64,000 nucleotides of DNA from Mycobacterium noviomagense (GTDB lineage Bacteria > Actinomycetota > Actinomycetes > Mycobacteriales > Mycobacteriaceae). A program made the position numbers and the translations under genes. The stretch covers positions 434,001 through 498,000 of the forward strand of contig NZ_AP022583.1 of assembly GCF_010731635.1 (NCBI RefSeq), given 5' to 3'. Numbering within the stretch: the first letter of the stretch is position 1; every line of letters begins with the position of its first letter. Positions 33,552-33,806 of the stretch are shown here, in pieces. The notes under the pieces were generated by a model, which made no database searches, was not told where the DNA came from, and saw nothing but the letters and a program-made list of their open reading frames with translations.

Positions 33552-33806
33552 TTACTTGACTGGGGTGGCGAAAACGAACAGAGCCATGAACGCCAGATTG
33601 ATGAAGTACATGGCCTCCACCAGACCGACGGTGATGAAGAACGGAGTGAACAACCGGCCTTGTGCTTCCGGCTGGCGGGCGATGCCGGAGATCAGCGCGT
33701 TACCGGCGATACCGTCACCGATAGCGGCGCCAATCGCGCCGCCGCCCAAGATCAGTCCACCGCCGATGAGGGCGCCGGACGCGACTTGTGGAGCTAACCC
33801 TGCCAT
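33552..33806 (-). CDS. atpE: ATP synthase c subunit, bedaquiline-site Met variant
   Basis: 84-residue c-ring protein with two transmembrane helices and the polar loop ARQPEAQGR. E64 (E61 in M. tuberculosis) carries the proton. The next-but-one residue is Met66 (VEAMYFINLAF), equal to position 63, which is Ala in M. tuberculosis. Ala63Met is the natural variant known from M. xenopi and a few relatives with intrinsic tolerance to bedaquiline. The N-terminus is three residues longer than in M. tuberculosis (MAGLAPQVASGALIGGG). A very strong AAGGAGG ribosome binding site (33814-33820) fits the high copy number needed for a ring. Confidence 0.97.
   Translation of the reverse strand: MAGLAPQVASGALIGGGLILGGGAIGAAIGDGIAGNALISGIARQPEAQGRLFTPFFITVGLVEAMYFINLAFMALFVFATPVK

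What the first reader, a model, noticed from the sequence alone, without database searches (positions are those of the whole stretch)
33606..33614. AtpE has Met at the position of Ala63, the natural bedaquiline-tolerance variant
The c subunit reads VEAMYF after the proton-carrying Glu (E64 here). M. tuberculosis has VEAAYF. Met at this position is known in M. xenopi and a few other species with intrinsic bedaquiline tolerance. It predicts poor drug binding and also narrows the lineage of this genome.
Basis: partly seen in the sequence, partly recalled or inferred. Interest (0 to 1): 0.78.

Follow-up and report, generated by a model that had tools for sequence, protein, structure and literature searches.

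The report
Bedaquiline-contact methionine in mycobacterial ATP synthase
The proton-rotor protein of this mycobacterium naturally carries a methionine where the tuberculosis drug bedaquiline touches it, a known variant that in the related mycobacteria examined came with a second change that the papers seen do not discuss.

Summary
AtpE (33552-33806, minus, 84 aa) reads VEAMYF; codon 33609-33611 is ATG on the minus strand, Met66 here = M. tuberculosis position 63; E64 = E61. The reading is only partly right. Met63 is a published natural variant, here shared by the M. xenopi/M. heckeshornense branch of slow growers, not a mutation of this strain. It is not confined to a few species: 36 of 396 genus genomes carry it, in several lineages, so it narrows the lineage only weakly. 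In the genus it came with a second change: 35 of 36 Met63 genomes have Ala at position 25 (the 36th is cut there), and 64 of 64 Ala63 genomes fetched have Gly25. In rapid growers the trees of atpI and atpB, next to atpE, follow this state and disagree with rpoB and the rest of the operon, which suggests exchange between species. Poor drug binding is plausible, but MICs conflict: 4 ug/ml for M. xenopi quoted in PMC5817190, 0.125 in PMC9769519. A known variant with two details that I did not find in print; interest moderate.

The parts
33552..33806 (-). atpE, F-type ATP synthase subunit c, 84 aa
   Evidence: ORF; PF00137 over cut-off, only match in the genome; 141 bits to PDB 8j0s subunit c
33609..33611 (-). 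ATG codon, Met66 here = Met at M. tuberculosis position 63
   Evidence: numbering
33615..33617 (-). GAG codon, Glu64 here = proton-carrying Glu61
   Evidence: numbering; role from established knowledge of c subunits
33723..33725 (-). GCT codon, Ala28 here = Ala at M. tuberculosis position 25 (Gly in the Ala63 genomes read), the coupled change
   Evidence: letters; coupling
33887..34639 (-). atpB, subunit a; its tree follows the 25/63 state in rapid growers
   Evidence: part of an ORF, ATG start at 34639 read; named by order and sequence; trees
34632..35099 (-). atpI; its tree also follows the 25/63 state
   Evidence: relatives carry PF03899 and the name 'ATP synthase subunit I'; trees
33024..33542 (-). 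atpF; first downstream gene, its tree does not follow the 25/63 state
   Evidence: named by order and sequence, not by a family search
27413..33017 (-). atpFH (31677-33017), atpA (29986-31641), atpG (29062-29979), atpD (27413-29038): rest of the operon used as comparison
   Evidence: named by order and sequence

Best explanation
This is the normal c subunit of a slow-growing mycobacterium related to M. heckeshornense and M. xenopi. Met at position 63 stands at a residue that bedaquiline touches beside Glu61; its larger side chain most likely reduces drug affinity without harming rotation. In the genus this ring type is a two-residue state, Ala25 on helix 1 with Met63 on helix 2, found together in every genome in which both could be read. 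In this genome's own branch it is most simply inherited by descent. In rapid growers it has passed between species together with atpI and atpB by homologous recombination, the stretch being about 1.7 kb in the clearest comparison. Shown: the sequence, the coupling in the genomes read, the tree conflict. Inferred: lower drug affinity and its degree, a structural reason for the coupling, recombination as the cause of the conflict; the direction of transfer is open.
For: Sequence and numbering. Met63 in 36 of 396 genus genomes. Coupling: of 100 genus genomes read, 35 Ala25/Met63, 64 Gly25/Ala63, 1 Met63 with position 25 cut off, 0 mixed; with named records added and duplicates removed, 36, 123, 1 and 0 of 160 contexts. 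Only positions 25 and 63 separate the two sets fully. The Nocardia, Gordonia, Tsukamurella and Williamsia contexts held (3, 3, 6, 1) are Gly25/Ala63, so Ala25/Met63 is probably derived in the genus. Tree conflict, 45 genomes: Met63 needs 4-5 changes on atpI and atpB trees, 8-11 on atpF, atpFH, atpA, atpG and atpD trees and 8 on rpoB; third positions alone give 3 for atpB, 6 for atpI, 7-11 for the others. On larger sets: atpB 6 against atpA 14. The 11 rapid-grower Met63 rows named are one clade in atpI+atpB (99.8), rejected by rpoB (p-AU 2.5e-6), atpA+atpD (2.8e-63) and atpF+atpFH (1.8e-17); 8 of them with Ala63 genomes G201 and G064 are one clade in atpA+atpD (99.4) and atpF+atpFH (100), not rejected by rpoB (0.77), and rejected by atpI+atpB (5.5e-4). 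Sliding identity switches in one triple near the start of atpI and early in atpF. Nearest named AtpI: M. heckeshornense 85%, M. xenopi 83%. Contact: Ala67 of the drug-bound ring (= 63) in a quoted contact list; an A63L isolate with MIC >2 mg/L; both seen as passages.
Against: No MIC or binding measurement for this strain. MICs reported for Met63 species are low in PMC9769519. Position 25 is not in the contact list quoted. Coupling is not universal: 3 of the best 120 database relatives are Gly25/Met63 (P0077, P0091, P0113), and in the class search 20 of 22 scorable rows are Gly25 with Leu63. Since atpE may travel, independent joint origins are few: 6 independent pairs on rpoB, 7 on atpA+atpD, only 3 on atpI+atpB, too few there for the sign test. 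The sliding comparison is not uniform: for G078/G201/G315 the Met63 pair is not closer over the middle of atpB, and for G084/G275/G178 the closer stretch runs on to about 2 kb downstream. The rpoB search missed a tree 22.6 log units better, so its count of changes is provisional. The slow-grower clade has support 63 only in rpoB. Groups for the AU tests were named after the first trees were seen, and the 45 genomes (23 of 36 Met63) were picked by me.
Confidence: 0.56

Rival explanations
1. Met63 alone lowers bedaquiline binding; Ala25 is a neutral neighbour that stays with it only because the two codons are 114 bases apart and are inherited or exchanged together.
For: The published attributions seen name position 63 only. 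Position 25 is not in the quoted contact list. Only 3 independent pairs remain on the atpI+atpB tree. Three Gly25/Met63 relatives exist outside the set read here.
Against: The 23 Met63 rows as one clade are rejected even by atpI+atpB (p-AU 2.6e-4), so the pair sits on more than one background unless atpE moved alone; two Chloroflexi records (L054, L075) show the same pair; no atpE position between codons 25 and 63 separates the sets fully.
Confidence: 0.28
2. Met63 has little effect on drug susceptibility in this lineage; reported MIC differences come from efflux, permeability or assay conditions.
For: MIC 0.125 for M. xenopi, 0.25 for M. shimoidei, 0.125 for M. thermoresistibile in one study; M. 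duvalii and M. neoaurum at 2 ug/ml without an atpE change. The genome has 12 matches to the MmpS family, 8 of them with E of 1e-30 or less (not compared with other species).
Against: M. flavescens with Met63 at >2 in two strains; M. xenopi at 4 as quoted there; A63L in an M. tuberculosis isolate with MIC >2.
Confidence: 0.17
3. An acquired resistance mutation or a sequencing error in this strain.
For: None found.
Against: The slow-grower relatives carry the same pair; from GCG or GCC it would take two or three base changes plus a second codon.
Confidence: 0.01

Closest known systems
Natural Met63 AtpE of M. xenopi, M. shimoidei, M. novocastrense and M. flavescens (PMC5817190, whole text seen)
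   Same: Same residue at the same position.
   Different: The window species is a distinct relative (AtpI 83% to M. xenopi, 85% to M. heckeshornense). That text calls Ala63 conserved in all other known NTM; here 36 of 396 genus genomes have Met63. Its text does not discuss position 25; its Figure 1 alignment is not held.
Acquired bedaquiline-resistance changes of M. tuberculosis AtpE (A63P, A63V, A63L, I66M; G25S together with D28G; PMC12263412, passages)
   Same: Same residue 63 and, for G25S, the same residue 25.
   Different: Those were found in treated cases or selected strains; here the state is shared by the whole slow-grower branch read.
Drug-bound c ring of M. phlei (entries 4v1f-4v1h; species recalled, structure described in PMC6963887, passage)
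   Same: 135 bits over 75 residues.
   Different: Its sequence is Gly25/Ala63. Of the four closest PDB sequences (8j0s, 4v1f, 7jg5, 9vks) none has Met63 (alignments).

Membership tests
F-type ATP synthase subunit c | PF00137 domain over cut-off | tested here: met
   47.2 bits against a cut-off of 24
F-type ATP synthase subunit c | Carboxylate in helix 2 and RQPE loop | tested here: met
   Glu64 and ARQPEA in the translation
F-type ATP synthase subunit c | Gene lies among the atp genes and is the only copy | tested here: met
   Between atpB and atpF by order and sequence; one PF00137 match in the genome
Natural Met63 mycobacteria | Met at position 63 shared by the lineage | tested here: met
   slow-grower relatives share it
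Natural Met63 mycobacteria | Raised bedaquiline MIC | not testable with these tools
   No MIC for this strain; reports on relatives conflict
Acquired atpE resistance mutation | Residue differs from that of close relatives | tested here: not met
   The slow-grower relatives in its clade have Met63 and Ala25
M. xenopi as the source species | Near-identical atp proteins | tested here: not met
   AtpI 83% to the M. xenopi protein
Recombining atpI-atpB-atpE stretch | Tree of the stretch conflicts with rpoB and downstream genes | tested here: met
   for rapid growers
Recombining atpI-atpB-atpE stretch | Same breakpoints in each case | tested here: not met
   Three triples give three different extents
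Recombining atpI-atpB-atpE stretch | Present in the window's own branch | tested here: inconclusive
   Slow-grower Met63 clade not rejected by atpI+atpB or atpA+atpD (p-AU 0.14, 0.45); Ala63 G387 falls among them in one protein tree

The most novel reading that the evidence does not exclude
Mycobacteria keep two alternative c-ring types, Gly25/Ala63 and Ala25/Met63, and swap between them in nature by exchanging stretches of the atp operon that hold atpE with atpI and atpB, perhaps in both directions. Intrinsic bedaquiline tolerance would then be a mobile and reversible property older than the drug, set by a two-residue state rather than by Met63 alone, and perhaps maintained by natural c-ring ligands or by lipid or temperature demands.
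Probability: 0.3. Interest if true: 0.62.

Novelty: new member of a known kind. Interest (0 to 1): 0.42.

Why it matters
Bedaquiline is considered for non-tuberculous mycobacterial disease, and Met63 is cited as the mark of natural tolerance. If about one species in eleven carries it (36 of 396), if it comes with Ala25 in the genus (35 of 35 readable), and if MICs reported for such species run from 0.125 to >2 ug/ml, the mark needs re-testing as a pair. The tree conflict would also mean that the target of a last-line drug can be replaced as a unit between environmental species.

Tried and rejected
Co-change in subunit a: no AtpB position was both shared by the two Met63 groups and rare in Ala63 rows, so AtpB seems to travel with atpE rather than to compensate it. 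The same test did flag one position in AtpI (69), one in AtpFH (214) and four at the ends of AtpD, all with mixed residues or few rows; not followed.

A single origin of all Met63 genes: rejected by rpoB, atpA+atpD and atpI+atpB. A mixed tree of named and unnamed loci over wecA, atpA, atpD and atpFH ('core', 11 changes) split by which genes each record held and is not relied on. Naming the source species failed: the nearest AtpI of all is an unnamed metagenome protein (P0121, 90%), and the one genome scan may leave near records out. Structure prediction was not tried; a single hairpin would not show the drug site. Drug contacts come from a review passage, since the primary paper is not held; two primary papers on natural resistance are not held. 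A passage search of PMC9516385 found none of the terms. One search was of no use; one search was an input error.

Print searches for the pairing of positions 25 and 63. None of the texts or passages that I saw mentions it; most listed papers were seen only as listings, and figures are not held.

Full report
What is there. The minus-strand ORF 33552-33806 encodes an 84-residue c subunit ending ...TVGLVEAMYFINLAFMALFVFATPVK. It scores 47.2 bits against PF00137 (cut-off 24) and is the only match in the genome. Against the 81-residue c subunit of PDB 8j0s the offset is +3, so Met66 is M. tuberculosis position 63, Glu64 is 61 and Ala28 is 25.

How common it is. A pattern for VEAMYFI was found in 36 of 396 genus genomes, the window's own included (34 of 361 that are at least 90% complete and at most 5% contaminated). 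The 396 were drawn from a larger group. A pattern with any residue at position 63 was found in 385 of the same 396; only part of those matches was printed, so for the rest I know only that they did not match the Met pattern. The text of PMC5817190 (whole) calls Ala63 conserved in all known NTM but M. xenopi, M. shimoidei, M. novocastrense and M. flavescens. Here Met63 is also seen in records named M. kyorinense, 'M. vanbaalenii isolate BC8_1' and Mycolicibacter acidiphilus, M. palauense and M. thermoresistibile and, by equal contig length, M. heckeshornense.

The coupled change. Of 100 genus genomes read (36 Met63, all that one search found, and 64 Ala63 taken in the order of the list), 35 are Ala25/Met63, 64 are Gly25/Ala63, and one (G355) is Met63 with position 25 beyond the end of its contig. 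With named records added and duplicates removed the counts are 36, 123 and 1 of 160 contexts; dropped before that count were L054 and L075 (Chloroflexi, Ala25/Met63) and L079 (an extra copy, Gly25/Thr63), and L211 (an extra copy, Gly25/Ile63) was not among its inputs. Only positions 25 and 63 separate the sets fully. Among the best 120 of 2358 database relatives, 57 are Ala25/Met63, 56 Gly25/Ala63, 3 Gly25/Met63, 1 Ala25/Ile63, 1 Gly25/Thr63, 1 Gly25/Gly63 and 1 gapped at 25. Ala25 with Ala63 was not seen in any of these sets. In the class search (loci L212-L281) 22 of 70 loci gave a scorable row, six of them from the same family as the window; all 22 are Leu63, 20 with Gly25 and 2 with Ala25. 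So the coupling is tight in the mycobacteria read and loose beyond them.

History. The Nocardia, Gordonia, Tsukamurella and Williamsia contexts held are Gly25/Ala63, so Ala25/Met63 is probably derived in the genus. I chose 48 handles for rpoB; G359 gave no match and the split matches of G319 and G007 were left out, which leaves 45 genomes, 23 of them Met63. On these the Met63 state needs 8 changes on the rpoB DNA tree, 4 on the DNA trees of atpI and of atpB, and 8-11 on those of atpF, atpFH, atpA, atpG and atpD; protein trees give 5 (atpI), 4 (atpB), 8-10 downstream and 8 (rpoB). Third codon positions alone give 6 (atpI), 3 (atpB), 7-11 downstream and 8 (rpoB), so synonymous sites carry the signal too. 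On larger mixed sets atpB needs 6 and atpA 14, and the joint atpI-atpB protein tree 5.

AU tests. The 11 rapid-grower Met63 rows other than G182 and G262 are one clade in atpI+atpB (99.8); rpoB, atpA+atpD and atpF+atpFH each reject that. In atpA+atpD and atpF+atpFH 8 of the 11 form a clade with the Ala63 genomes G201 and G064 (99.4, 100); rpoB does not reject that grouping (0.77; the held tree was even 22.6 log units better than the free one, so the rpoB search was not complete), and atpI+atpB rejects it (5.5e-4). The groups were named after first trees had been seen.

Extent. For G315 (Met63), G349 (Met63) and G064 (Ala63), the two Met63 genomes are closer to each other from about 1.4 kb upstream to about 0.25 kb downstream of codon 60 of atpE, and then less close than G315 and G064. 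For G078, G315 (Met63) and G201 (Ala63) the Met63 pair is closer over atpI and from the end of atpB to early atpF, but not over the middle of atpB. For G084, G178 (Met63) and G275 (Ala63) it is closer on to about 2 kb downstream. Over 240 bases of atpE, pairs of the same state are 90.0-94.6% identical and pairs of different state 82.5-82.9%. Exchange of stretches around atpE, of different lengths, explains this best; which state moved into which lineage is open. G182 and G262 stand apart from the other rapid growers in the atpI-atpB tree.

The window's own branch. In rpoB the 10 slow-grower Met63 genomes used form one side of a branch, support 63 only; atpI+atpB and atpA+atpD do not reject it (p-AU 0.14 and 0.45). 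Descent within this branch is the simplest reading. In one protein tree Ala63 genome G387 falls among them, so an exchange there is possible. The nearest named AtpI proteins are M. heckeshornense 85% and M. xenopi 83%, below an unnamed metagenome protein at 90%: the source is a relative of both, not M. xenopi itself.

Mechanism. The contact list quoted in PMC5874750 (passages) includes Ala67, which is position 63 by the offset, but not residue 29, which is position 25. In PMC12263412 (passages) an M. tuberculosis isolate with A63L had MIC above 2 mg/L, and an isolate with G25S and D28G together is told of. A bulky Met63 should therefore crowd the site. That Ala25 packs against it is my inference; no structure was examined. 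No co-change was found in AtpB.

Phenotype evidence conflicts. PMC5817190 quotes 4 ug/ml for M. xenopi and measured >2 for two M. flavescens strains with Met63, but also 2 for M. duvalii and M. neoaurum without an atpE change. PMC9769519 (section 5) lists M. xenopi 0.125, M. shimoidei 0.25, M. thermoresistibile 0.125, M. smegmatis 0.125, H37Rv 0.0625, and M. celatum and M. rhodesiae >2. The genotype here predicts reduced susceptibility only with moderate confidence.

Verdict. The variant is real, ordinary for its branch and already known as a kind. Not met in the print that I could search are its spread through the genus, its pairing with Ala25, and the exchange of the stretch around atpE.

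Noticed in passing
L079 (M. peregrinum contig, 3501-3716) and L211 (G095, 7959-8249): Extra c-subunit genes (Gly25 with Thr63 or Ile63) with no atp genes recognised beside them; in L079 the gene lies between two ORFs beginning MTTIVIAAFGSRGDVAP and MTTIAIIAIGSRGDVAP that look like glycosyltransferases (by eye, no family search).
   Followed up: partly
L227 (G122): A second PF00137 match in a genus genome, beside an ORF that looks by eye like another ATPase subunit.
   Followed up: no
G234, contig 6, 1602331 and 1649571: Two VEAAYFIN motifs 47 kb apart on one strand, possibly a duplicated atpE or operon.
   Followed up: no
window 19227-24363, minus: 16S, 23S and 5S rRNA genes, full-length matches.
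   Followed up: no
window 50151-50351, minus: Match to the Mycobacterium sRNA family npcTB_6715, just over its gathering score (76.4 against 72).
   Followed up: no
window 39481-39532, minus: L31-Actinobacteria leader just upstream of the ORF 39220-39465, which looks like ribosomal protein L31.
   Followed up: no
window 27413-35099: The operon looks mosaic: AtpB is 94% and AtpI 85% identical to L117 (AtpB next best group 84% after L146 at 94%), but AtpA is 93% to L136 and at most 89% to the others listed.
   Followed up: partly
L054 and L075 (Chloroflexi records): Chloroflexi AtpE with Ala25 and Met63, about 70% identical to the window's protein; possible old transfer or retained state.
   Followed up: no
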